A stretch of 64,000 nucleotides of DNA. Source: Actinomycetota bacterium (GTDB lineage Bacteria > Actinomycetota > Actinomycetes > Propionibacteriales > Propionibacteriaceae). Where the stretch lies: positions 1 through 64,000 of the forward strand of contig JAIUOS010000021.1 of the NCBI GenBank assembly GCA_020161755.1, given 5' to 3'. Made by a program: the position numbers and the translations under genes. Shown here piece by piece: positions 27,074 through 39,219 of the stretch. Under the pieces are notes generated by a model that searched no databases, was not told the origin of the DNA, and worked only from the letters and a program-made list of their open reading frames with translations. Position 1 is the first letter of the stretch; each line of letters begins with the position of its first letter.

Positions 27074-29883
27074 TCAGCCGCGTCGGCCGCCGACGGCCAG
27101 CCAGGCCAGGTCGTCGAAGCCGGCCGAGCCAGCGTGCTCGTGCGTGCATGCGAAGCGGTTGTTCCGGATGTCCTGGGCGACCGCGTCGATCTTCGCCCGA
27201 ATGCCATCGACCGCCGCAACCTTCACCCGCTCACGCTCGCTCCTCCCCTTCTGGTCGAGGTTGCGGATCTCGATGGCGTCCGCCGATTCGCCCGTCAGCT
27301 CCCGGTAGCCGAGCGCGTAGGTGTACAGCTGGTCCCAGGTCACGTCGGTGGCCTGTGAGTGCTCGGTCGACTTGAAGTCGACGATGGACGTCTCGCCGGT
27401 GTCCAGCTTGGTGATGAGGTCGATGCGGCCGTTCACAGTGACGCCGGGCGACACCTGCACCTGGATCTGTTTCTCGGAGTGGATCGTGCGGGTCAGGTCG
27501 TCGCCATGGAGCCGGAAATATCGCTCGATCGCTGTGACCGCCGACTTCTGCAGTTGCTCGCGCAGGGCCGGGTAGGCGTACGGAGTGTGCAGGTGTCGGT
27601 CCACCAACTCCGCCGCTTCCGACGGCCCCGGGACGTCTCCGTCGATCGCCCGCTTGTGCATCTCGGCCAGCGCGTCGTGCAGGCCCTTGCCGTAGCCGAG
27701 CGCCTCGTGGATCGGCGGGTTGAACCCGTACATGAACCGCAGCTTGAACTGGTAGGGACAGTCGAACAGGTATTTCAGCTCCGAGAAGGAGATCTCGACC
27801 TTGGCGGTCTCGATCCGCGGCGTCGGAGCCAGGCGCTGGAGGTCCGGAAGGCCCTCGTCCCGCGTGGAGACCCAGGCCGACTGGGTGACGTGCCGGAAGA
27901 AGTCGGACCGGTTCCGCTGCTGCTGGTTGTCGGCGATCGGCGCGTAGGTCGCGTACAGGTACTTCTTCGCGCGCGTCACCGCCACGTAGAACAGGCGGGT
28001 CTCCTCGGACCTCGTGCCCCGGTAACGGTCTCCGTTCGGCACGGCTTCGATGGGCAGGACGTGGAACACGTTGCGCCCGCCCTGGCGCCGGCTGGGGAAC
28101 CGGTTGGCGCGGAGACACGGGACGAACACGGCCGGCCACTGCATGCCCTTGGCCCGATGGACGGTCGAGATCGTCACAGCGTCGGGTGTGGCGTACCCGG
28201 AGTCCTCGTCGGCCTCCTCGTAGTAGTCGGGCGCCTGGAAGCGCAAGAAGCCTGCGAATCCCTCGTACTTCGATCGCGGGGACGACGAGAAGTGGATCGC
28301 CTCGAAGTCGGAGATGACCTGGGAGAACTTGCCCAGCTGGTACATCACGAGTTCGGCCCGCTCCGGGCTGCCCGGGATCGTGTCCTCACGGATCCCGAGC
28401 GTCTCCAGGAGGTCCAGATAGAGCCGCTGGATGTTGTAGGTGCCCCAGCGCTCACCACTGTCGAACCGCTTCGCCTTGTCGAGCATCGCCAGCGCCCTCG
28501 GGAACAGGGCGGGGTCGGGAAGAAGGTTGGCGGCCTGCCACAACCCGAGCAGCGCGCCGGCGTCGATCTCGTCCGTCACGTACTGGAAGAGCGCGACCAC
28601 GGCCACGATCTCGTCGGCGTCGAACAGCCGCGCCAGGCCCTTGACGAGGTAGGGAATGCCCCGCCCCTTGAACTCGTGACGAGCGCGTCCGCGTCCTTCA
28701 CCGTCCGGAACAGGACGGCACAGTCCGACCAGGACAGCCCGCGCGGCGCGCTTCCCGGGTCGTCGGCGAACGGAACGCCTCGAAGTTCGAGAATCCGGTC
28801 GGCGATCCACGCGGCCTCGCCCTGCGGATCATCGAACGACAACGCCAGCAGGTCGCCACGTTGCCACTGCTGATGCGAGGCGTACTCCATCCCCTTCTCG
28901 AGCCGCTCGGCATCGGGTATCAGTTCGGCGATGCTGCGACCGAGAGCGACGACCCCTTTGCTCGAACGGAAGTTCTCCGACAGTTCGATCTGCCGCACGT
29001 CCGAGTGGTTGCCGGCGAAGGCGAGGATGTTCCGGACCTCGCTGCCACGCCACTGGTAGATCGTCTGGTCGTCGTCGCCGACCACGCAGAGATTGGCCCC
29101 GAACCGGACGAGCGCGGCCACCAGCCGCTCCTGCAGCGGGTTCACGTCCTGGTACTCGTCGACCACCACATACTTCACGTGGTCGCGGACGTGTCGCAGC
29201 ACCGCTTGGGTGGGGCGGTCAGGGTCGTCCTCGTCGGACTCCAGGTAGGCCACCGCGGTCGCGACCATCGTGGTGTAGTCGAAGTAGTTCCGTTTGGCGA
29301 TCATCTGCAGGTACGAGTCGAGGCTGTCGTTCACCCCGTCCGGGACAGCCTCCTGGTCGACGGCGTCCTCCTGCAGGATCGACAGCGCCCGCGCGTACAG
29401 CCGGGAGTCCTTCCACCGGCTGAGCGTCCCCCCAGCGAGCAGCGGGCAGGACGTCAGCCCCGACTCCTTGCTGTTGCGATCGATCAGCAGCCGCTGCGTG
29501 ATGTCGGTCAGCACACCGAACTTGAAAGCCGCCGGGACGAAGGTCTGCAACAGGTCGAGGCAGAAGCCATGCATCGTGCCGATGTACATCTCGGCCATGC
29601 CGAGGACCTCGCCGTGCTCCGCACCGACGATCGTGTGGATGCGTTCGGCAAGCTCGGCGGCGGCCTTCTCGGTGAAGGTGAAGGCGACGACGTTCCCGGG
29701 CGCGACCCCGGGCTCGGCCAGGATCCGCGAGATCCGCTGCGAGATCACCTGGGTCTTGCCGGAACCCGCGCACGCGATCAATTGCAGGGGACGGGAGAGT
29801 TCCGAGATCGCGTCCTGCTGGGCGGGCGTGTAGGTGACCACGGCAGCATCCTGCCCGATCACACTGACACCACTTGCCTTCAT
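27074..29883 (-). pseudogene. UvrD/AddA-like helicase-nuclease, one frameshift
   Basis: Two frames make one protein of about 936 residues. The N-terminal frame has TPAQQDAI, Walker A CAGSGKT, FTEKAAAELAER, VVDEYQDVNPLQ, GDDDQTIYQWRG. After DADALV the frame changes near 28676-28682 and continues HEFKGRGIPYLVKGL, TVHRAKGMQWPAVF, EETRLFYVAVTRAK, then a PD-(D/E)XK nuclease (GRIDLITKLDTGETSIVDFKS). One missing base (GTC-CAC versus GTCAC) explains the break. It looks like a DNA-end or defence helicase-nuclease. Either a real mutation or a sequencing error. ATG at 29883; a GTG at 29841 with an AGGA upstream is an alternative. Confidence 0.88.
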
Positions 29884-29894
29884 CCACTCCGTAC

Positions 29895-29909
29895 GTACAA
29901 TGGGTGTAC
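29895..29909. promoter_or_regulatory. Operator-like palindrome of toxin-antitoxin pair 1
   Basis: GTACA-ATGGG-TGTAC, perfect five-base arms. It overlaps a -10 hexamer TACAAT (29896-29901) for the antitoxin gene and lies 12 bp from the helicase ATG on the other strand, so binding could affect both. DUF1778 antitoxins autoregulate in known TacA systems; this site is inference. Confidence 0.55.
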
Positions 29910-29926
29910 GCATAGGGAGGCTCGCC

Positions 29927-30226
29927 ATGGCAGAACCGCTGGCCGAATCCAGGCAAGCAAGGACCAGCCGAATCAATCTGCGGGCAACGCGGCGTCAGGA
30001 GGAACTCCTGCGCCGTGCCGCCGAGGCGACCGACCACACGGTCACCGACTTCGTACTCGACAGCGCCGTCGACCGTGCCGAGCGGGTGCTCGCCGACCTG
30101 CGCTGGTTCACCGTGACCGAGGAGCAGTACACCGAGTTCCTGCGGCTGCTCGACGCACCTCTGCCGTCGACGGAGAAGTTCGACCGCCTGTTCTCCCGGC
30201 CGTCGCCGTTCACTGCGCCGGAATGA
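29927..30226 (+). CDS. DUF1778 antitoxin (TacA-like), pair 1
   Basis: 99 residues. N-terminal ribbon-helix-helix: RINLRATRRQEELLRRAAEA then DHTVTDFVLDSAVDRAERVL, the DUF1778 signature. The C-terminal tail (DAPLPSTEKFDRLFSRP) is the part that usually binds the acetyltransferase toxin. ATG at 29927 follows AGGGAGG by six bases. Stop overlaps the toxin start as ATGA. It should bind the palindrome at 29895 and neutralise the next gene product. Confidence 0.9.
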   Translation: MAEPLAESRQARTSRINLRATRRQEELLRRAAEATDHTVTDFVLDSAVDRAERVLADLRWFTVTEEQYTEFLRLLDAPLPSTEKFDRLFSRPSPFTAPE

Positions 30227-30720
30227 ACCTGCCCCCGCCGCGCAGGCTCCAGCGTTCGGACGACCGGACGGGCTTCCACAGCGGCGTTACTGAACTTGAC
30301 GAGTGGCTCGTAACGTACGCGTGGCAGAATCAACAGGCGGGAAACGCGGTCACTTACGTGGTCAGCGACCGTGATCGGGTGGCCGGTTACTACGCGATCG
30401 CCATGGCAGCTGTCGCCCGGTCAGCCGCCCCCGAGCCGCTACAGAAGGGTCGCCCATCGCAGATCCCTTGCATCCTCCTGGCCCGGCTGGCCGTGGACGT
30501 CACCTACACCCGCCGGGGCTTCGGCTGGGGACTGCTCAGGGATGCGCTGGCTCGGTCGGTCCAGCTGAGCGGAAGCATCGGCGCGGCCGCTGTTCTCGTC
30601 CACTGCCAGGACGATGAGGCGCGGAGGTTCTACCTGCACCACGGCGACTTCCTGCCGTCACCCGCCAACGACCTTCACCTCATGATTCCGATCCGGGCGC
30701 TTGATCGCTACCTGGGATAG
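30223..30720 (+). CDS. GNAT toxin (TacT-like), pair 1
   Basis: 165-residue acetyltransferase. Starts with FHSGVTELDEWL (the F.SG...LD.WL motif of TacT/AtaT relatives), then VAGYYAIAMAAVAR, LARLAVDVTYTRRGFGWGLL (acetyl-CoA loop RxxGxG-like), VHCQDDEARRFYLHHGD and a final LHLMIPI. Known members acetylate aminoacyl-tRNA and stop translation. The tRNA target cannot be read here. Translationally coupled to the antitoxin. Confidence 0.9.
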   Translation: MNLPPPRRLQRSDDRTGFHSGVTELDEWLVTYAWQNQQAGNAVTYVVSDRDRVAGYYAIAMAAVARSAAPEPLQKGRPSQIPCILLARLAVDVTYTRRGFGWGLLRDALARSVQLSGSIGAAAVLVHCQDDEARRFYLHHGDFLPSPANDLHLMIPIRALDRYLG

Positions 30721-30758
30721 GAGGGCAGAGACTTCGATCGGCTGTCCTACAAGTGCCG

Positions 30759-30764
30759 TACAAT
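30759..30764 (+). promoter_or_regulatory. -10 element TACAAT, leaderless start of pair 2
   Basis: TACAAT ends six bases before the ATG at 30771. Transcription starting about six or seven bases downstream would begin at the ATG itself, giving a leaderless mRNA, which actinobacteria use widely. No Shine-Dalgarno site is visible. The same TACAAT core precedes pair 1. Confidence 0.5.
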
Positions 30765-30770
30765 CGAAGC

Positions 30771-31046
30771 ATGGCAGCGAACACCAAGTCCCGCCGGCTC
30801 GAGGCGAGGCTCGAACCGGCGATCGACGACCTGATCACCGAGGCCGCGCGCACGCTCGGCCAGTCCCGTTCGGAGTTCATCGTGCGAGCTGCGCGGGAGT
30901 CGGCCGAGCGAGTGTTGGCCCGCGCCGACGTCACGATCATGTCCGCGCGCCAGTTCGACGTGCTGGTCGCGAGCCTCGACGAACCGGAGCCGCTGGAGAA
31001 GCTCGCCCGGGCCGCAGCGGCCCCGCGCCCCTATCGCCGCGGATGA
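30771..31046 (+). CDS. DUF1778 antitoxin (TacA-like), pair 2
   Basis: 91 residues with the same layout as the first antitoxin: RRLEARLEPAIDDLITEAAR, SRSEFIVRAARESAERVLAR and a C-terminal tail ending APRPYRRG. It is diverged from pair 1, so the pairs are unlikely to be a recent duplication. ATG at 30771 is preferred over GTG 30753 because of the -10 spacing. ATGA overlap with the toxin. Confidence 0.88.
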   Translation: MAANTKSRRLEARLEPAIDDLITEAARTLGQSRSEFIVRAARESAERVLARADVTIMSARQFDVLVASLDEPEPLEKLARAAAAPRPYRRG

Positions 31047-31597
31047 CCGACTGGGTCTCGTCCAGAATCAGCCCCGCCCACGAGCTCGACCGTTTCGACT
31101 GCGGACGGGAACCCCTCAACCACTGGCTGCGGGAGTTCGCCCTGCGGGCGGACAGCCAGGCAACCGCACGCACCATCGTCTGGACTCGTCCGGACGATCC
31201 GGCGGTGATCGCGTACTACTCCGTTGCACCTACCGAACTGCGCCGGGAAAGGCTGGCCCGCAGTGCCCACGGCGGCCACTCGGTCATTCCCGGCTACCTC
31301 CTGGCACGGCTGGCGCTCGACCGCGGCGTGCAGGGACGCGGGCTGGGGACGTACCTGCTGCTCGACGCGGTCGAACTGGTTGTTGCTGCCAGCACGACCG
31401 GCGGCGGCCGGCTCCTCGTCGTGGACGCCATCGATGACGCAGCCGCCGCCTTCTACCGCGCGCACGGCTTCACTCCGATTACCGGAACCCCCCCGCCTCT
31501 ACGCACGCATCAGCTCACTGCGGGCAATGCTCCACTCCTGACGGATCTGGATCAGCAGTCGCTGGTCTGGAGATTGGTCAGGTGTTTGCCGATGTAG
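31043..31597 (+). CDS. GNAT toxin (TacT-like), pair 2, frameshifted tail
   Basis: 184 residues as read. Motifs: ISPAHELDRFDCGREPLNHWL, VIAYYSVAPTELRR, LARLALDRGVQGRGLGTYLL, RLLVVDAIDDAAAAFYRAHGF. After FTPITGTP the frame departs from the family. A C7 tract at 31488-31494 is followed, in the next frame, by RLYARISSLRAMLHS and a stop at 31541, the family-like C-terminus. With six C the protein would end there. As read, the tail runs 46 bp into the convergent gene. Either an assembly error, a slip hotspot, or inactivation. Confidence 0.85.
   Translation: MTDWVSSRISPAHELDRFDCGREPLNHWLREFALRADSQATARTIVWTRPDDPAVIAYYSVAPTELRRERLARSAHGGHSVIPGYLLARLALDRGVQGRGLGTYLLLDAVELVVAASTTGGGRLLVVDAIDDAAAAFYRAHGFTPITGTPPPLRTHQLTAGNAPLLTDLDQQSLVWRLVRCLPM
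31488..31494 (+). repeat. C7 homopolymer in the toxin gene
   Basis: Seven C in a row at the point where the toxin frame departs from the family. Slippage to six C restores a family-like end. Confidence 0.9.
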
Positions 31598-33399
31598 CCG
31601 ATGTAGATCTTGCCGGTTCCGGCTGTGTCGTCGTAATAGTGCATGCGCGGTGCGAACGTGTCCTGATGGGTGGGTCGGAAGTGCGCCTCCATCAGGACCC
31701 GACCGTCGGGACTCACGGGGGTCGGAACGGGAAGCACTCGCTCATTCCGCCAAGCGTCTCTGGACAGCACCGACTCACTCTCCTTCGGCGCATGCCGGGT
31801 TGGAGAGCACTTCTTGCCGGTGACCCGATCGTCGGTCAGGTACATGTGAACGCTGCCGCGGAAGCCGGCCTGCCATTGCCCGACGTAGTCGTAGAGCACC
31901 TGGACATACTCCCAAAAGGCATTCGTGTAGCGGCCAACCTGATCCCGCTTCTGGACCTCCTCGACAGCACCGAGGTCGCCGGTGAACTCGACTCGGGCGA
32001 ATGCCTGGTGCTGCTCGCCGGAGCCAGCGGTCAGCATCTCGACCAACTCGCTGATGCTCGACGGCGCTGTCCAGGCGACATCCCGATCCGGCGTGGTGTA
32101 TGCGTCGTCGTACTGGCCAGCGGCCACCAACCGCGACTGAAGAAACTCCACCTTGCGTCGGAGGTCTGTGGCGTCGTCCTGAGCCTCTGCGAGTTCCAGT
32201 TCAAGGCCATCGCGATCACCCTGAAGTTCGCTCCGAGCATCTCGCTCCTGCGACAGTGCATCCTCAAGCGAGGCGGCTTCTTCAAGCATGGTTTCGGCTG
32301 TGGCGACTTGCTTCGCGATGTAGGAGTCGAGCTCGTCGAGGTCGGTCTCCTTGAGCTCTGCATCGCGTCTGAGCCATCTGGCGACGACCTGCCGGACCCG
32401 GTCGAGCAGGGACGATCGCCTGGGGGCAGGCGCAACCTCTGCGACAAGGGCGGCAGTGGCACGCTGTTCGATCAGTTCGTCGCGTCCGAGTCTCGCCAGC
32501 GCCTCCGTGACCATCGCTACGCTGCGGCGGACGTCCGCGGGCAGCGGACGCTGGAGCAGTGCCCCTCGGGTCTGGATCGCATAGGCCGCCTGAAGCGCGC
32601 CGGAGACCCCGCGCCCATGGATCGCACGGGCGAAGGACGCCGGGCTGAGTACCCGATGGCGACGCCCGTCCCACGGATCGTCGAGATCGACCGCGGGAAG
32701 GAAGGTGCGCACACGGCCCGGCTCGATCTGGTGGGAGGAGGGCAGTTGGTCATTGAGTGCCTGAGCGGCCTCTTGGGTGAGGAAGAATACTGCCGCCACG
32801 CCGACGACCTTGGCGGTCAGCTGCCTGATGCGGTCCCGCAGGCTGGCGTCGTACTCGCGCCCCAGTGATGTCGCAACGATGACCGACACTGAGCGCCCCT
32901 CATCAACGATGGCGTCGAATACCTCGTCGACGTCGTCGGCGTTCACCAGTAAGGGTTCGGAGGTGACCCGAGCTTGACCGTCGAATACCGCCTCACGTTC
33001 GAGCAACTGACGCACGATTCGCGGCGGGTCAACCTCGCCCGGTGCATCCGGATCATCGGCGCGTCGAGCCTCGATGACCAGTGTGTCGGAGCGGTGACCA
33101 CCTGATGGGAAGTCGATGGCGGTGAGCTGCACTTCCCAGGTGCCGGTCGACGTGAGTTCCGTCCATCGCAGGAGGAGTCGCCTGCTGTTGTCCTCCGATC
33201 GATCAACCCGGGCGGCTGCAAGCGTCTGGTGCTCGCCGAAGTGGTGGATGCCCGGCCCAAAGAACCGGCCGGATTCCAGGTCGTTGCGATACTTCCGCCC
33301 AATCTTGGGCGCGAGCCACGTCTCCACCTCCTGCTCGGCAAGACGGATCGAGTCGGTACCTGCGGGCAGTCGCAGGATGGTGCGGTACGGGAGTGGCAC
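31552..33399 (-). CDS. Unknown coiled-coil protein in the restriction-modification operon
   Basis: 615 residues; I do not recognise it. Residues about 1-330 are globular (PYRTILRLPAGTDSIRLAE; AKVVGVAAVFFLTQEAAQAL; VRTFLPAVDLDDPWDGRRH). Then RWLRRDAELKETDLDELDS starts a coiled coil to about residue 430. The C-terminal 180 residues form another domain, ending FAPRMHYYDDTAGTGKIYIG and YIGKHLTNLQTSDC, a tail I associate with other uncharacterised defence-island proteins. It starts 2 bp after the methyltransferase stop. The GC content looks slightly lower than in the core genes. Could be an accessory effector or a specificity or sensor subunit. Confidence 0.75.
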   Translation of the reverse strand: MPLPYRTILRLPAGTDSIRLAEQEVETWLAPKIGRKYRNDLESGRFFGPGIHHFGEHQTLAAARVDRSEDNSRRLLLRWTELTSTGTWEVQLTAIDFPSGGHRSDTLVIEARRADDPDAPGEVDPPRIVRQLLEREAVFDGQARVTSEPLLVNADDVDEVFDAIVDEGRSVSVIVATSLGREYDASLRDRIRQLTAKVVGVAAVFFLTQEAAQALNDQLPSSHQIEPGRVRTFLPAVDLDDPWDGRRHRVLSPASFARAIHGRGVSGALQAAYAIQTRGALLQRPLPADVRRSVAMVTEALARLGRDELIEQRATAALVAEVAPAPRRSSLLDRVRQVVARWLRRDAELKETDLDELDSYIAKQVATAETMLEEAASLEDALSQERDARSELQGDRDGLELELAEAQDDATDLRRKVEFLQSRLVAAGQYDDAYTTPDRDVAWTAPSSISELVEMLTAGSGEQHQAFARVEFTGDLGAVEEVQKRDQVGRYTNAFWEYVQVLYDYVGQWQAGFRGSVHMYLTDDRVTGKKCSPTRHAPKESESVLSRDAWRNERVLPVPTPVSPDGRVLMEAHFRPTHQDTFAPRMHYYDDTAGTGKIYIGYIGKHLTNLQTSDC

Positions 33400-33401
33400 T
33401 G

Positions 33402-36068
33402 TCAGCTCACCTCGAGAACCTTCATGACTTCGTCGCCGTAGTCGTTGATCACCTTCACCGCGATCTTTCCGGACGCGGGTCGGTCGAAGTGCTGGGACGT
33501 GTCGCTGTAGAGCGTGGCCCAGGCGTCGGGGTCGATCTCGGCCTTCAGGGCCGTCTTCAGCTTCTTGTACGGGTCACCGCCGCCGGTGAAGTAGCAGTGG
33601 CGGACGAAGAACGACTCCTCGTTGTAGTCGGTGTCGATCATCCACAGCGCGATCTGCTCGATGCCGGCGCTGCGGGTGGCGCCCGTGGTCGGGTCGTACA
33701 CGTCGACGCCGTGCAGCGTCACTGTGTGGGTGCCGTCGGGGAAGGTGCGGACGTGGAGGTCGGGCTCGCCGAACACCGTGAACAGGTTGCCCGCCTTCGT
33801 GTTCTTCAATTCCCCCATCAGCAGGTCGGCGTTCATCCGCACCAGCAGCACCTGGGTGCGGCCGAGGTGACGCTCGCCGGCCACCCTCGCGAAGCCCTCG
33901 TCGGCCACTTCGACGGTCCTCCCGTCGTTCTCGAGGACGCCGGTCGCCTTCGGGTCGAACGCGAATCCCAGCACCGCCACCAACTCGATGCCCGCCGCGA
34001 TCGCCTCCTTCGCCGCGCTCTTGATGTACGCCGGGCTCACCGTGCCGTACTGCGGACCCAGCGCGATCGCCACCTTCGCCGGTGCACCGTCCTCGCCGTC
34101 GCGACGCTCCCCGATCGCCTGCAGGTACTGCCCGGGATACGGCTCCACCGTCGCGAACTCCAGCCGCTCGGCCTTCCGGCCGTTCTGGATGCCCGCCGTC
34201 TGCAGACGCTCCAGCACTGAGGCCTCGAAGCTCGCGTCATCGACGTCTGTCGGCTCCGGCTCGGCCTCCACCTCCTCGAAGCTGAGCGAGCGGTGCGGGG
34301 ACAGGCTCTCCACCGTGAACGGCCCGGACACCCGGATCTTGTTCTTGTCCTCGAACGGCTTGTCGTAGAGCAGTTCGTAGTCGGCGTACCGCTTGATCGC
34401 CGCGTCGATCTCTGCCCGGCTCATGCCTTCGCGGATGTCCGGGTTGTTCGCGATCGACTTCAAGGTGATGTGCTGGACGCGCTCGTAGACGAACCCGTGC
34501 CGAATGTCACCGTTCGTGGACGCCCGCGGCAGCGGTTTGCCGACCAGTTCCTGCTCCTTCTGCACGCCGGCCGGGGAGTCGGCGAGCAGGTAGTACGGGT
34601 ACTTCGCGCCCATCAGCCGTTGCCGGGCCAAGGCCAGCGCAACCCGGGACGTATCGATCGTGATCCAGCGTCTGCCCCACTGCTCGGCCACGAACGCGGT
34701 CGTGCCCGAGCCGCAGGTGGGGTCGACGACGAGATCGCCGGGGTCGGTGCACATCAGCATGCACCGCTGAACGACCTTGGACACGGTCTGCACAACATAG
34801 GTCTTCTCATCCACGAACCCAGCCTGGGTCGTGTCTACCCAGATGTTCGAGATCGGCTGAACGGCGAAGTCGTCAAAGAACCGCGCATAGCGAACTTGAT
34901 TCGTGCTTGCGATCACCCTGCCGGCAGTCGCGAGGCGGCGCATGCCCTCGGGGTGGGTCTTCCAATGGCCGTTCGCGCCAGGAGAGTAGGTTCGCCCACC
35001 GAATTCGAATGCACTTGGGGCTCCCGTTGGCCCCTGCGATACCAGGTTGTCAAGCATGTACAGGCGACCCGCAGGCAATGGTGATTCGCCGGACCGCTCC
35101 TGCTTCGTCAAGGGACGTCGCTGGCCGTCGTGGTCAACGAAATTGAAACCCCAACCGCCAGTGGCCTTCGGCTCCTTCGGCAAGAAGATCTGCCGGTACT
35201 TCAGCGCGTCATACGCCTTGGCGTACCAGATGACCGTGTCGGCTACCGACCCGACGTATTGCGCTGTCTGAGAGCTGGTCGTGAGGAACGAAATCTCGCT
35301 CACGAAGTTCCCCGCGCCAAGAACCTCGTCGAGCAGCGCCCGTACGAGGTGCACGTTCTCGTCCCCGATCTGCACGAAGACGCTGCCCGACTCAGTGAGC
35401 AGGTCGCGGGCCACGACGAGCCGGTCACGCAGGTAGGCCAGGTAGGAGTGGATGCCGAGCTCCCAGGTGTCCCGGAAGGCCTTGATCTGCTCGGCTTCCC
35501 GAACCGCATCAGCGAGGTTGCCGTCCTTCACGTCCCGCTTTCGCGCGGACACCTGCCAGTTGGAGCCGAACTTGATGCCGTAGGGCGGGTCGATGTAGAT
35601 CATCTGCACCTTGCCGCGCAGGCCTTCGCGCTCGGCGAGGGAGCCCATCACCTGCAGGGAGTCGCCGAGGATCATCCGGTTCTTCCAGCTCTCCTGGTGC
35701 TGGTAGAACTCCACCTGCGACACCTCGTCCAGCTCGTCGTAGCTGTCGAACAGGGTTAGTTCGGGCTCGGGTTGTCCCTCGGCTGCGGTCTTCCGCAGGT
35801 TCTCGATCAGCACGCGAGGGTCGATCTTCTCCTGGATGTAGATCGGCGGGGCGTCCACGACCAGGTCCTCGCGGTCCTGGGCGTCCTTGCCCTTCCAGAC
35901 CAGCTGCGGGTCGAGGCTGGGGTCGCGCGGGTACAGCAGCGGCTCCCGCGCGTCGTCGGCGATCCCGTAGGCGGCCACTGCGTCCGCGGTCGGATTGTTC
36001 ACCCGTTTGTCGGGGTGGACGTAGGAGCCGACGTGGGCGGGTCCGTTCGACTTCTTCGCTCGGGGCAT
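33402..36068 (-). CDS. Type III-like DNA methyltransferase (Mod), adenine-specific
   Basis: 888 residues. Catalytic motif IV is DPPYGIKFGS near residue 160; the AdoMet motif DPTCGSGTT is near residue 450. This order (IV before I) is the beta class, which includes type III Mod. The stretch between contains the likely target-recognition domain. A long C-terminal part of unknown role follows. It should methylate adenine at the site cut by the Res protein. It starts 4 bp after the res stop and ends 2 bp before the unknown gene. Confidence 0.92.
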   Translation of the reverse strand: MPRAKKSNGPAHVGSYVHPDKRVNNPTADAVAAYGIADDAREPLLYPRDPSLDPQLVWKGKDAQDREDLVVDAPPIYIQEKIDPRVLIENLRKTAAEGQPEPELTLFDSYDELDEVSQVEFYQHQESWKNRMILGDSLQVMGSLAEREGLRGKVQMIYIDPPYGIKFGSNWQVSARKRDVKDGNLADAVREAEQIKAFRDTWELGIHSYLAYLRDRLVVARDLLTESGSVFVQIGDENVHLVRALLDEVLGAGNFVSEISFLTTSSQTAQYVGSVADTVIWYAKAYDALKYRQIFLPKEPKATGGWGFNFVDHDGQRRPLTKQERSGESPLPAGRLYMLDNLVSQGPTGAPSAFEFGGRTYSPGANGHWKTHPEGMRRLATAGRVIASTNQVRYARFFDDFAVQPISNIWVDTTQAGFVDEKTYVVQTVSKVVQRCMLMCTDPGDLVVDPTCGSGTTAFVAEQWGRRWITIDTSRVALALARQRLMGAKYPYYLLADSPAGVQKEQELVGKPLPRASTNGDIRHGFVYERVQHITLKSIANNPDIREGMSRAEIDAAIKRYADYELLYDKPFEDKNKIRVSGPFTVESLSPHRSLSFEEVEAEPEPTDVDDASFEASVLERLQTAGIQNGRKAERLEFATVEPYPGQYLQAIGERRDGEDGAPAKVAIALGPQYGTVSPAYIKSAAKEAIAAGIELVAVLGFAFDPKATGVLENDGRTVEVADEGFARVAGERHLGRTQVLLVRMNADLLMGELKNTKAGNLFTVFGEPDLHVRTFPDGTHTVTLHGVDVYDPTTGATRSAGIEQIALWMIDTDYNEESFFVRHCYFTGGGDPYKKLKTALKAEIDPDAWATLYSDTSQHFDRPASGKIAVKVINDYGDEVMKVLEVS

Positions 36069-36072
36069 GGCT

Positions 36073-39000
36073 TCAGTTCTCCGTTGTCGAGGCCGGGCCG
36101 ACGTGCGCGAGCAGCCCGGAGTTCAGCAGGTCGTAGTCGCCGATGATCGGCTCGTCGCGCACCAGCGAGCGGATGGCCGCGCGCAGCACCGCGTCCGCGT
36201 CGTCCACCCCGGCCTTGCCCAGCTCGAGGTAGCCCCACCGGCCGAACCCGCCGTGGTTGTTCACCGCGACGCACCAGCTGTCGCGGGCCGTCCGAGCCTT
36301 CTCCCTGGTTGGCCCGGGGCTCTTCTGCGTCCCGGACACCTCCACGATCAGGCACCGCTCGATGGCCGGGTCGACGGCCTCGGCGCACGCCTTCGGCGAC
36401 AGCCTGAGCAGGAAGTCCGGCCAGTACACGTGCGGGATGCCCTTGTGCACATAGGGGATCTCGAAGCCCAGGTGGTCGTTCTTCACGTAGCTGGTGAGCA
36501 GCCCGGCCGCAGCGAGCTTCTCGCAGGCCCGGGCCAGCGTCCGCTCCCACTCGTTGCCGTCCTTGCCGTCGAGGGTGACGTTGTTGACGTGCGAGTACTC
36601 GGTCGGTTCGACCTTCTTGCGGGTGCGGAAGCCGACCACCTTCGTGGACGACGAGGGGACGCCGGCACGCAGGATCGGGCGCAGCCGGGGACGGCGGGCG
36701 TCCTCACCCTCCAACCGGGTGATCGCGTTGTGGATGGCCTCCGCGGCCAGCTGCTGCGGCTCGGTGAGGCACAGGTAGCCCAGGTCGTAGCCCGGCCCGA
36801 GGTGCACCCTGGACGCGAGGTATGCCTTGGTGAACTCAACCAGCCGCGGGAACAGCCACGGCCGCGCGTCGCCCTGGCTGGTGAAGAAGGTGCTCAGCAC
36901 CCGGCTGGCGATCTCGAAGGCGATCTGCTGCGGCCGGGCTGTCTTGATGCCCTCGATCCGCTCGGGCTGGCCGACGATGCCCTCAGACTGCACCCAGCTC
37001 GGCACCACGGCGTTGTCGATGGTGATCGCCTCGGCGTCCGCGGGGTCGAAGACCAGCTCGACGTCGGGGATCTCGACCCGGTAGCCGCTGAGCACGGGGA
37101 AGGTGATCTTCAGGTGCTCGCGGTCGGTCAGTGCCATCACGTCGACGCTGGGCTCCGGCGGCTTCCCCGGCGGCAGTGGCTTGTCGGACGGGATGAACGC
37201 GAACGGGATGCCGTAGACGTTCGAGTACTCGGCGGCGAAGAACTGGGTGTCCGGCTCGGGCACGTAGAAGCGACGGCGCAAGCCGCGTCCGACCACCTGC
37301 TCGCACAGCAGCTGCGAGCCGAACGCCCGGATGCCGAGGATGTGGCTGACCGTGTTCGCGTCCCAGCCCTCGGTGAGCATGGCCACGCTCACCACGCACC
37401 GCACCTGCTCGCCCAGCTTGCCGCGCTTGCCGACGGTGTTCATCACCTCGCGCAGGATGTCGGCGTCGGTGAGCTTGTCCGCGTCCGCGCCCGGGTTGGC
37501 CTCCCGGTAGGCGCGCTCAAAGGCCTCGATCTCCTCCTCCGCGGCCTTCCGGAACTCGAGCTTGAGCGCTTCTCCGGACTCGAGTTGACGGGAGTCGACG
37601 AGGATCGTCCGCGGTCGGGCCAGCGGCTGGTCGTTCATCACGTTGCTGAACAGCTCCAGGCGTCCGGCGGCGTGCCTGGTCTGCTCGCCGGCGGTGATGT
37701 CGTAGCCGGCGATCCAGTCGTGGATCAGCTTCGAGACGTGGGTGTTGGGCGAGACCACGATCATCACCGGCGGCGGCTCGCCGGCGTCCTTGAGTCGTTC
37801 CTCCCAGTCGTGGAACGACTTCTCGTAGCTGGAGTAGAGGCTGCGCAGGGCGCCCTCCAGGGCGGTCGGCATCACCCAGGTGCCGGGATCCGGCGGGGCG
37901 GCCTTGGCCGACTTCGGCCAGTTCGGGTCGTCCTTGACTTGGTCGTAGAGGTGCAGGTAGCTGACCTGGGCCTGCTTGGCGTCGTCGTCGACGGGAAGCC
38001 GCGGGATCTTCACGATGCCGGACTCGATGGCGTCCATCAGGGAGAAGTCGCAGACCGTCCACGGGAAGATCAGGCCCTCGCTCCAGCCGGAGCCCTTCAG
38101 GTAGAACGGGGTCGCTGACAGGTCGTAGACGGTCTTCACGCCGGCGTAGCGCTTGAGGTACTGCAGGCCCTTGAACCAGACGGTGGCGTCGCGGTTCTCG
38201 TCCTTCATGTCGGCGTCGGGAGCGCTCAGGTCAGCGTCCTCGCGCTCCGTGGTGTTCTGCTGGTAGCAGTGGTGCGCCTCGTCGTTGAGGACGATGATCT
38301 CGCCCTTGCCACCGCCCAGTCCGCGCAGTACCCGGGTGACGATGGCCTGCGGGGTTTCGACGAACGGGTCCTGGGCGATCGCCTTGCCACCGAGCAGCAG
38401 CTTGCGAGTGTTGGCCGAGACGCCCTTGACCTCGCGGGACAGCTTCGGCAGGAACTGGTGGTAGTTGACGATCTCGATCTGCGCCTGGCCGAGTTGCTGG
38501 CGCAGGTCCGGGGGCACGAGGCCGCGGAGGTCGTAGTAGTTGTCCGGGTCCTCGGGCTGCAGCACCCGCAGCCGGTCGCGGATGGTGATGCCTGGGGTGA
38601 CGACGAGGAAGCGCTTGGTGAACCGGGCGTCGTTCGGGCTGGCGATCTTGTTCAGCACCTGCCACGCGATCAGCATCGCCATCACCACGGTCTTGCCGGT
38701 GCCGGTGGCGAGCTTGAGCGCCACCCGCGGCAGGCCGGCGTTGTGGGTGTCGTTGGCGTCGGTGAGGATCTCGCGCCAGTCGACGCCGGAGAGGCTGGGC
38801 GTGTAGTCGCGGCGTCCGACGACCTCAGCGAGGAAGATCGCGGTCTCCGCCGCCTCGCGCTGGGCGAAGAGGATGCGGTTCTCCCGCTCGGGGTCGGCCC
38901 AGTGGTTGAGCAGCTTGCGGGAGATCGGGCTCACCCGCTGGTAGCCGCGCTGACGCCAGATGCCGACCTCCTGGCGCAGCTGGTCGATGGCGTCGTTGCG

Positions 39001-39219
39001 GGTGATTCGCTCGTTGGTGACCTCAAGTCCGTCGAACAGGGCGTCCTGGCCCTTGGTCGCCTTGCCCTTCTTCGGCTTGGGCACGGGAATGAAGAACTCG
39101 CTCGGGCGGCGTCCGGGCTTCAGCTCTCCGGTCGGGCCGTTCGGGCCGATCTCGAAGTACTGGGACGGCTCCTCGTAGGGCGAGTTGATCACGGGGTTGG
39201 CCAGAGCGTCCGTGCTCAT
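36073..39219 (-). CDS. Type III-like restriction enzyme (Res) subunit
   Basis: 1048 residues. DEAD-like helicase: Walker A LATGTGKTVVMAML near residue 170, VLNDEAHHCYQ near 314, TILVDSRQLESGE and VSVAMLTEGWDANTV, VGRGLRRRFY. The C-terminal part has a PD-(D/E)XK nuclease feel (WPDFLLRLS, RCLIVEVSGTQKS). Members of this BPTD_3080-type family cut DNA after ATP-driven movement. First gene of res-mod-unknown. Its promoter should be in the 160 bp shared with the divergent SOS-controlled HNH gene. Confidence 0.92.
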   Translation of the reverse strand: MSTDALANPVINSPYEEPSQYFEIGPNGPTGELKPGRRPSEFFIPVPKPKKGKATKGQDALFDGLEVTNERITRNDAIDQLRQEVGIWRQRGYQRVSPISRKLLNHWADPERENRILFAQREAAETAIFLAEVVGRRDYTPSLSGVDWREILTDANDTHNAGLPRVALKLATGTGKTVVMAMLIAWQVLNKIASPNDARFTKRFLVVTPGITIRDRLRVLQPEDPDNYYDLRGLVPPDLRQQLGQAQIEIVNYHQFLPKLSREVKGVSANTRKLLLGGKAIAQDPFVETPQAIVTRVLRGLGGGKGEIIVLNDEAHHCYQQNTTEREDADLSAPDADMKDENRDATVWFKGLQYLKRYAGVKTVYDLSATPFYLKGSGWSEGLIFPWTVCDFSLMDAIESGIVKIPRLPVDDDAKQAQVSYLHLYDQVKDDPNWPKSAKAAPPDPGTWVMPTALEGALRSLYSSYEKSFHDWEERLKDAGEPPPVMIVVSPNTHVSKLIHDWIAGYDITAGEQTRHAAGRLELFSNVMNDQPLARPRTILVDSRQLESGEALKLEFRKAAEEEIEAFERAYREANPGADADKLTDADILREVMNTVGKRGKLGEQVRCVVSVAMLTEGWDANTVSHILGIRAFGSQLLCEQVVGRGLRRRFYVPEPDTQFFAAEYSNVYGIPFAFIPSDKPLPPGKPPEPSVDVMALTDREHLKITFPVLSGYRVEIPDVELVFDPADAEAITIDNAVVPSWVQSEGIVGQPERIEGIKTARPQQIAFEIASRVLSTFFTSQGDARPWLFPRLVEFTKAYLASRVHLGPGYDLGYLCLTEPQQLAAEAIHNAITRLEGEDARRPRLRPILRAGVPSSSTKVVGFRTRKKVEPTEYSHVNNVTLDGKDGNEWERTLARACEKLAAAGLLTSYVKNDHLGFEIPYVHKGIPHVYWPDFLLRLSPKACAEAVDPAIERCLIVEVSGTQKSPGPTREKARTARDSWCVAVNNHGGFGRWGYLELGKAGVDDADAVLRAAIRSLVRDEPIIGDYDLLNSGLLAHVGPASTTEN

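What the first reader, a model, noticed from the sequence alone, without database searches (positions are those of the whole stretch)
31552..33399. Unknown 615-residue third gene of a type III-like restriction operon
Globular N-domain, central coiled coil, and a C-terminal domain with YYDDTAGTGKIYIG-like tail, 2 bp behind mod. No name fits. Fixed linkage with res and mod would mean a three-component system not described by classic type III.
Basis: inference. Interest (0 to 1): 0.85.

Follow-up and report, generated by a model that had tools for sequence, protein, structure and literature searches.

The report
Recruited add-on gene behind restriction operon
The unknown third gene is real and sits in the operon, but it does not look like a fixed part of this restriction system: it belongs to a widespread actinobacterial protein family that usually stands elsewhere in the genome and has repeatedly ended up beside very different phage-defence systems.

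Summary
In detail: on the minus strand a GTG-started 615-aa gene begins 2 bp after mod, which begins 4 bp after a BPTD_3080-family res. The inferred fixed three-component system does not hold. The closest res-mod pair found (73%/68% identical, L091) lacks the gene. None of 16 other genomes with an over-cut-off res has a full-length relative; none of 50 family-bearing genomes searched has an over-cut-off res. 'No name fits' is partly wrong: residues 120-260 match PADLOC HEC-07 and the C-terminus matches Menshen NsnC, both partially. Family members adjoin Hma, BREX-like, DISARM and other modification-type genes: 14 of 67 loci against 1 of 57 random loci; 51 of 67 show no reference defence gene. 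AlphaFold2 gives a good model (pLDDT 88): two N-terminal alpha/beta domains, a coiled coil and a C-domain whose R554, H573, R585, G601 and H606 are invariant in 49 of 49 aligned rows. Best reading: a coiled-coil sensor-effector add-on recruited behind a two-gene type III-like system; the mechanism is inferred.

The parts
31552..33399 (-). The gene in question: 615 aa, GTG start, four-part protein (N-domain about 1-120, HEC-07-like domain about 120-260, helical and coiled-coil middle about 265-426, C-terminal domain about 449-615)
31555..32055 (-). C-terminal domain (residues 449-615): partial match to PADLOC NsnC; R554, H573, R585, G601, H606 invariant in 49 of 49 aligned rows
32620..33042 (-). 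Central domain (residues 120-260): match to PADLOC HEC-07 (6.5e-14); thioredoxin-like in Foldseek (weak, assigned by size and position)
33402..36068 (-). mod: N6/N4-type DNA methyltransferase, 888 aa, YIDPPY and DPTCGSG motifs
36073..39219 (-). res: BPTD_3080-family restriction helicase/endonuclease, 1048 aa, over the curated cut-off

Best explanation
The core system is a two-gene (res, mod) type III-like restriction-modification system of the BPTD_3080 family. The 615-aa gene is an accessory protein of a separate actinobacterial family, distantly related to PADLOC's HEC-07, whose C-terminal domain is shared with Menshen NsnC. It was recruited behind mod and is probably translated in step with it. 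SHOWN: operon geometry; family membership; absence from the other res-mod loci and res genomes examined; association of the family with several unrelated modification-type defence systems; a good predicted fold with an invariant R/H/R/H set. INFERRED: the coiled coil makes it a dimer; the two N-terminal alpha/beta domains bind a partner or sense an infection cue; the C-terminal domain is the active part (nuclease, other nucleic-acid enzyme, or ligand-triggered switch). It would act as a second-line effector or trigger when restriction fails or is blocked, as proposed for the backup effectors beside BREX and BREX-related systems (PMC12839542, section 35 part 1 seen).
For: HEC-07 matches 26 of 28 and NsnC 22 of 28 members scanned. 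Neighbours named by PADLOC: DrmA/DrmB/DrmMI (L022), DrmA (L026), PglX/IIG-like and BrxL (L023), HmaA and HmaB (L045); HmaC with a Swt1-type HEPN (L148). By BLAST: a HmaA-like C-terminal half just before the gene in L024, and the last ~72 residues of a HmaC-like gene 330 bp upstream in L033, one of the two rows that group with the window gene at 100/99. Defence genes (hits to reference proteins from another locus) at 14 of 67 family loci against 1 of 57 random stretches, Fisher p = 0.0015; 12 of 65, p = 0.0027, without two near copies. Tree of 48 rows: a 7-row group around the window gene (91/93, not starred) holds 5 defence-labelled rows with different partners; the label needs at least 6 changes and 1 of 500 shuffles is as low. 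C-domain invariants. Separable parts: coil plus C-domain alone in L026, N-part alone in f94.
Against: 51 of 67 family loci show none of the reference defence genes, and several clades keep the gene in conserved synteny without them, so its basic role may lie outside defence. The reference proteins were picked by me from family loci, which favours the family even with self-hits removed; three of the 14 positives (L040, L041, L138) are distant partial hits. Near is not always in one operon: in L045 and L026 the defence genes are 2 kb or more away on the other strand. HEC-07 and NsnC matches are partial, and L026, the C-part-only form, matches no PADLOC profile. No enzyme motif, Pfam domain or significant fold match was found. 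The effector role rests on conservation alone.
Confidence: 0.62

Rival explanations
1. A fixed third subunit of a three-component type III-like system: it binds Res-Mod and helps target search or cleavage.
For: 2-bp spacing behind mod, same strand. Type III systems with an extra helicase-like ATPase gene 5' of mod are reported in more than 500 genomes (PMC8259958, passages).
Against: Absent at the closest res-mod pair, 73% and 68% identical, and from its genome. No full-length relative in 16 of 16 other res genomes: nine had no match, six only matches in the coiled-coil part of the profile, and one (G121) a match over the coil and C-domain about 1.2 Mb from its res. 0 of 50 family genomes searched has an over-cut-off res; 3 had weak matches. 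Other genes follow mod elsewhere: GajA/GajB-like in L086, UvrD-like in L082.
Confidence: 0.08
2. A housekeeping or regulatory protein of actinobacteria, not dedicated to defence, that landed behind mod by chance.
For: 51 of 67 loci have none of the reference defence genes. Conserved neighbours in f92 (mainly g281), in four Acidimicrobiales/Acidimicrobiaceae MAGs and in f94. Present in 60 of 394 genomes of the class, weak partial matches included.
Against: Defence neighbours are enriched over random stretches. In the window, L023, L147, L148 and L151 a defence-type gene lies within about 50 bp. The two best profile matches are both from a defence library, which is however the only library in which it matched well.
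Confidence: 0.2
3. A toxin-type RNase effector: the C-terminal domain is a remote RelE/YoeB-like fold.
For: Order helix-helix-strand-strand-strand with an invariant Arg at the start of the second strand and His after the last; the likeness to YoeB is recalled and came from no search.
Against: Profile comparison with 10 YoeB and 24 ParE sequences gave probabilities of 0.1% and 0.3%, no better than the other two domains, while YoeB against ParE, the positive control, gave 97.4% (one search was a first run with some rows on the wrong strand). No RelE-like entry among the 50 Foldseek rows shown of 1064.
Confidence: 0.06

Closest known systems
HEC-07 (PADLOC candidate; 'HEC (Hma embedded candidates)' in a table of PMC10855318, one passage seen)
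   Same: Central domain matches in 26 of 28 members (best 2.9e-26); in L148 a relative starts within about 50 bp after a HmaC gene
   Different: Only 142 of 553 profile positions match in the window protein; no hit to the Hma references in window 20001-45000; the C-terminal domain is not part of the match
NsnC of Menshen (PADLOC profiles)
   Same: Residues 464-607 match 193-310 of 316 (1.7e-9); 22 of 28 members match
   Different: No hit to the DUF262-type references near the window gene; the N-terminal 460 residues are outside the match. The Menshen domain paper is not held, so NsnC's own structure was not compared
m4C-type type III R-M systems with an extra gene (PMC8259958)
   Same: Res and Mod with a DPPY motif plus an extra gene; a Bordetella pertussis system is in its Table 4. 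That BPTD_3080 is that system is my guess from the name
   Different: Their extra gene is a helicase-like ATPase 5' of mod; this one is 3' of mod with no ATPase match. Which base this Mod methylates is not known
Auxiliary and backup effectors of BREX and BREX-related systems (PMC12839542)
   Same: Accessory genes beside modification-type defence cores, DUF499/Hma loci included
   Different: The classes named in the part of section 35 that I saw (HNH, HKD, PD-(D/E)XK, TOPRIM/OLD, HEPN, PIN, Schlafen) were not matched here

Membership tests
BPTD_3080-family type III-like R-M (res, mod) | Res over the NF046055 cut-off | tested here: met
   1056.6 bits, cut-off 800
BPTD_3080-family type III-like R-M (res, mod) | Adjacent Mod with amino-methyltransferase motifs | tested here: met
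   PF01555 1.3e-26, PADLOC MTase_III 3.8e-276; YIDPPY
BPTD_3080-family type III-like R-M (res, mod) | PD-(D/E)XK nuclease motif in Res | tested here: inconclusive
   PDF...EVSG, the lysine position altered as in several relatives; others have EIKG
Three-component type III system with this gene as subunit | Gene linked to res-mod across genomes | tested here: not met
   0 of 16 other res genomes with a full-length relative; 0 of 50 family genomes with an over-cut-off res
HEC-07 | Profile match along the protein | tested here: inconclusive
   6.5e-14 over residues 120-260 only
HEC-07 | Location within a Hma locus | tested here: not met
   No HmaA/HmaB/HmaC-like hit at 1e-8 in window 20001-45000; met for relative L148
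Menshen (NsnC) | NsnC profile match | tested here: inconclusive
   C-terminal part only, 1.7e-9
Menshen (NsnC) | DUF262 partner gene (Menshen has a DUF262 gene and a predicted OLD nuclease, PMC10952713 passages) | tested here: not met
   No hit to three DUF262-type references in window 20001-45000; an OLD gene was not searched for
RelE/YoeB/ParE toxin | Profile similarity of the C-domain | tested here: not met
   0.1% and 0.3%, positive control 97.4%
Backup effector of a defence operon | Toxic or nuclease activity triggered by infection | not testable with these tools
   needs expression and phage challenge

The most novel reading that the evidence does not exclude
The C-terminal domain is a new effector domain with an invariant R/H/R/H site. 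It is plugged, with different N-terminal or partner modules, into Menshen, DISARM, Hma/BREX-related, BREX-like and type III-like R-M loci, so that one family serves as an exchangeable backup weapon across mechanistically unrelated phage defences. (No significant Foldseek match for the whole model; the C-domain was not searched alone.)
Probability: 0.25. Interest if true: 0.7.

Novelty: new variant of a known kind. Interest (0 to 1): 0.45.

Why it matters
It turns a supposed third restriction subunit into a portable module found beside many defence systems. It names a concrete, testable site (E540, R554, H573, R585, H606) in a domain without a significant fold match here, and points to a slot behind BPTD_3080-type mod genes where different accessory genes sit. 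If the domain is catalytic, it would link Menshen, Hma, DISARM and type III-like loci by one shared weapon.

Tried and rejected
Fixed three-gene system: rejected. RelE/YoeB-like C-domain: no profile support (the first run had rows read on the wrong strand and is superseded). Phage origin: no match in 50,697 phage records by tblastn; PHROG hits only at E 0.046 or worse. Solved relatives by sequence: the full profile gives mostly coiled-coil hits; the C- and N-part profiles give best E-values of 0.018 and 0.1, unrelated proteins. The first AlphaFold2 run with 5 sequences was poor (pLDDT 59.8) and was not used. Foldseek on the good model: nothing at E <= 0.001 in PDB or BFVD. Best PDB rows: EagT6 (E 0.011, prob 0.80) and other small alpha/beta folds, and thioredoxin 2 (E 0.086, prob 0.97, TM by target 0.42); I assign them to the N-domain and central domain by size, since aligned ranges are not shown. 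Best BFVD rows: phage portal proteins (E 0.0035, prob 0.10), taken as chance. Literature: BPTD_3080 in 0 papers; searches for HEC-07 or Hma embedded candidate and others listed no paper on this gene that I recognised; subscription papers are mostly not held. Papers: passages of PMC8565338, PMC10855318, PMC10952713; passages and section 17 of PMC8259958; outline, passages, sections 29 and 33 and part 1 of 2 of section 35 of PMC12839542.

Counts and dropped rows. 67 family loci: 62 found by my ORF picker plus L024, L139, L142, L146 and L162, missed by it and added by a six-frame search; L027 and L028 (no clear family gene) were left out. The tree used 48 of the first 62 (at least 450 profile positions), so L024 and L026 are not in it, and L033, L040 and L041 stand there as 'none' although searches show a HmaC relic or distant hits. 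One search was the first form of the enrichment test (13 of 62 against 1 of 56); one search is the final one. Random stretches: 60 drawn, 57 fetched; three left out because they overlapped a family locus (one) or another draw (two). Locus lengths: family 9-26 kb, random 19.5 kb. One search was given 50 of the 59 non-own genomes matched; nine weak ones were left out; genomes of the named loci and plasmids were not searched for res as a whole. One search also lists 42 genomes with sub-cut-off res matches, whose loci I did not examine (L028 is a sub-cut-off locus of G351). Of the 16 res loci fetched many contigs end near res or mod; complete mod with sequence beyond: L082, L084, L086, L091, L092, L094, and of six plasmid loci L095, L096 (mod split), L097, L099 (two ORFs), L100. 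Names 'DUF262-type' and 'HsdM-like' are recalled from the look of the sequences; PADLOC calls the L023 gene Orf5/HEC-06/SspE-like and Pfam finds N6_Mtase in the L147 one. The ORF picker is a simple script and calls some false ORFs. Other phyla were not surveyed.

Full report
WHAT IS THERE. The gene lies on the minus strand, 33399..31552, 615 aa with a GTG start. It begins 2 bases after the mod stop codon, with GAGGTGAG shortly before it; mod begins 4 bases after the res stop. Res is a BPTD_3080-family enzyme at 1056.6 bits (cut-off 800) and Mod carries PF01555 and a PADLOC MTase_III match. The own genome has one such res, the one in the window.

WHAT FAMILY IT BELONGS TO. Pfam and NCBIfam give only weak, mostly coiled-coil matches, for it and for the 49 rows scanned. 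PADLOC gives two partial matches: residues 120-260 to HEC-07 (6.5e-14) and 464-607 to NsnC of Menshen (1.7e-9). Of 28 members scanned, 26 match HEC-07 and 22 match NsnC. Relatives were found in 8 of 296 genomes of the phylum with the single protein (own genome and weak matches included), in 60 of 394 genomes of the class with a profile (likewise), in 5 plasmid records and at 18 named loci, among them Streptomyces, Corynebacterium, Sphaerisporangium, Nocardia, Pauljensenia and Acidimicrobiia. No phage record matched.

LINKAGE WITH RES-MOD. In 396 genomes of the phylum 17 have an over-cut-off res. I fetched the loci of the 16 others and six plasmid loci. None held a family member in a six-frame profile search at E <= 1e-4; a second profile on called ORFs gave one hit, at E 0.13. 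The closest pair, L091, is 73% (Res) and 68% (Mod) identical to the window's, has no such gene, and its genome has no match at all. Whole-genome searches of all 17 gave matches in 8 at E <= 0.001: the window's own gene; six genomes with matches only in the coiled-coil part of the profile; and one (G121) with a match over the coil and C-domain about 1.2 Mb from its res. Conversely 0 of 50 family-bearing genomes searched has an over-cut-off res; 3 of 50 have weak matches. What follows mod elsewhere varies: GajA-like and GajB-like genes in L086, a UvrD-like gene in L082. The system reads as a two-gene core with a variable slot. A three-gene type III variant with a different extra gene, a helicase-like ATPase 5' of mod, was published in 2021 (PMC8259958; passages and section 17 seen).

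WHERE THE FAMILY LIVES. Of 67 loci examined, 16 have a hit to one of my reference defence proteins, the window among them, and 51 have none. Named by PADLOC or Pfam: DISARM genes (L022; DrmA in L026), PglX/IIG-like and BrxL with an Orf5/HEC-06-like gene on the other side (L023), HmaA and HmaB (L045), HmaC with a HEPN domain just before the family gene (L148), an N6-methylase ORF 44 bp away (L147). By BLAST only: L034 and L036 match the L022 DISARM genes, L151 has a gene similar to the L023 DUF262-type one directly before the family gene, L024 has the C-terminal half of a HmaA-like gene directly before it. L033 keeps the last ~72 residues of a HmaC-like gene 330 bp upstream. In L045 and L026 the defence genes are 2 kb or more away and on the other strand. 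Counting only hits to reference proteins taken from another locus, 14 of 67 family loci and 1 of 57 random 19.5-kb stretches from 20 contigs of family-bearing genomes are positive (Fisher p = 0.0015; 12 of 65, p = 0.0027, without two near copies). The reference set came from family loci and three positives are distant partial hits (L040, L041, L138), so this is a biased test. Other clades share neighbours without such genes (f92, mainly g281; four Acidimicrobiales/Acidimicrobiaceae MAGs; f94).

TREE. In a 48-row tree the window gene groups with L021 and L033 (100/99) and, less surely (91/93), with L148 (Hma), L023 (BREX-like), L147 and L138 (methyltransferase). The defence label, set before the relics in L033 and L024 were known, needs at least 6 changes; 1 of 500 shuffles is as low. 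This fits recruitment more than once, with one sub-group rich in defence loci of different kinds; losses would count as changes too.

STRUCTURE AND SITE. AlphaFold2 on 49 rows: mean pLDDT 88.3, pTM 0.66. Elements: an N-domain (strands and helices 5-113), a second alpha/beta unit (about 127-261), helices 265-345, a long helix 352-426, and a C-domain of helices followed by strands at 572-574, 585-591 and 597-604. Foldseek found nothing at E <= 0.001 in PDB or BFVD; the best hints are EagT6 (E 0.011) and thioredoxin 2 (prob 0.97, TM by target 0.42, E 0.086). In 49 aligned C-domains R554, H573, R585, G601 and H606 are invariant and W496, E540, V558, M570 and P584 nearly so (positions there are counted from residue 449). 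This looks like an active or binding site, but no known fold or motif was matched. RelE-likeness was tested by profile comparison with a working positive control and not supported. The parts are separable: coil plus C-domain alone in L026, N-part alone in f94.

MECHANISM. Most likely the two-gene R-M core restricts incoming DNA, and the third protein, probably made from the same message, is a coiled-coil dimer whose N-part binds a partner or an infection cue and whose C-part acts as a second-line effector. Geometry, family, distribution, enrichment and invariance are shown; co-transcription, dimerisation, sensing and effector activity are inferred. The frame comes from the description of auxiliary and backup effectors beside BREX and BREX-related systems (PMC12839542; sections 29 and 33, section 35 part 1, and passages seen). 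That paper treats Hma loci as BREX-related (passage). In the parts seen I found no description of this family; supplementary data were not seen.

VERDICT. What remains is a new combination of a known candidate accessory family with a type III-like core, and an uncharacterised C-terminal domain shared with other defence systems.

Noticed in passing
window 27074-29976 (-): A UvrD-like helicase with a PD-(D/E)XK domain is split over two reading frames (28576-29976 and 27074-28810); frameshift or assembly error, not resolved. A related UvrD-like gene lies convergent beside mod in L092.
   Followed up: partly
window 29834-31597 (+): A TacA-like antitoxin gene (29834-30226) and a GNAT acetyltransferase ORF (30701-31597) named by Pfam, with another GNAT-like ORF between them by eye, lie convergent to the finding's gene, between it and the UvrD gene.
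   Followed up: partly
L086 7166-10335 and L082 14307-16370: Other BPTD_3080 res-mod pairs carry GajA/GajB-like or UvrD-like genes directly behind mod: a variable accessory slot.
   Followed up: partly
L033 9453-9671 and L024 7377-8957: Relics or partial genes of Hma components (HmaC-like C-terminus; HmaA-like C-terminal half) upstream of family genes.
   Followed up: partly
L022, L034, L036: A 434-446 aa gene of unknown function stands about 100-120 bp before the family gene in three Streptomyces DISARM loci; the L022 copy has no PADLOC match and only a sub-threshold Ferritin match.
   Followed up: no
L215 (G121): A 466-aa reading frame ends in a divergent version of the same C-terminal domain; another frame just after it reads like an S4-type RNA-binding protein (by eye).
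   Followed up: no
L096 14126-18426: The mod gene of a Rhodococcus ruber plasmid system is interrupted by an IS3-family transposase gene.
   Followed up: no
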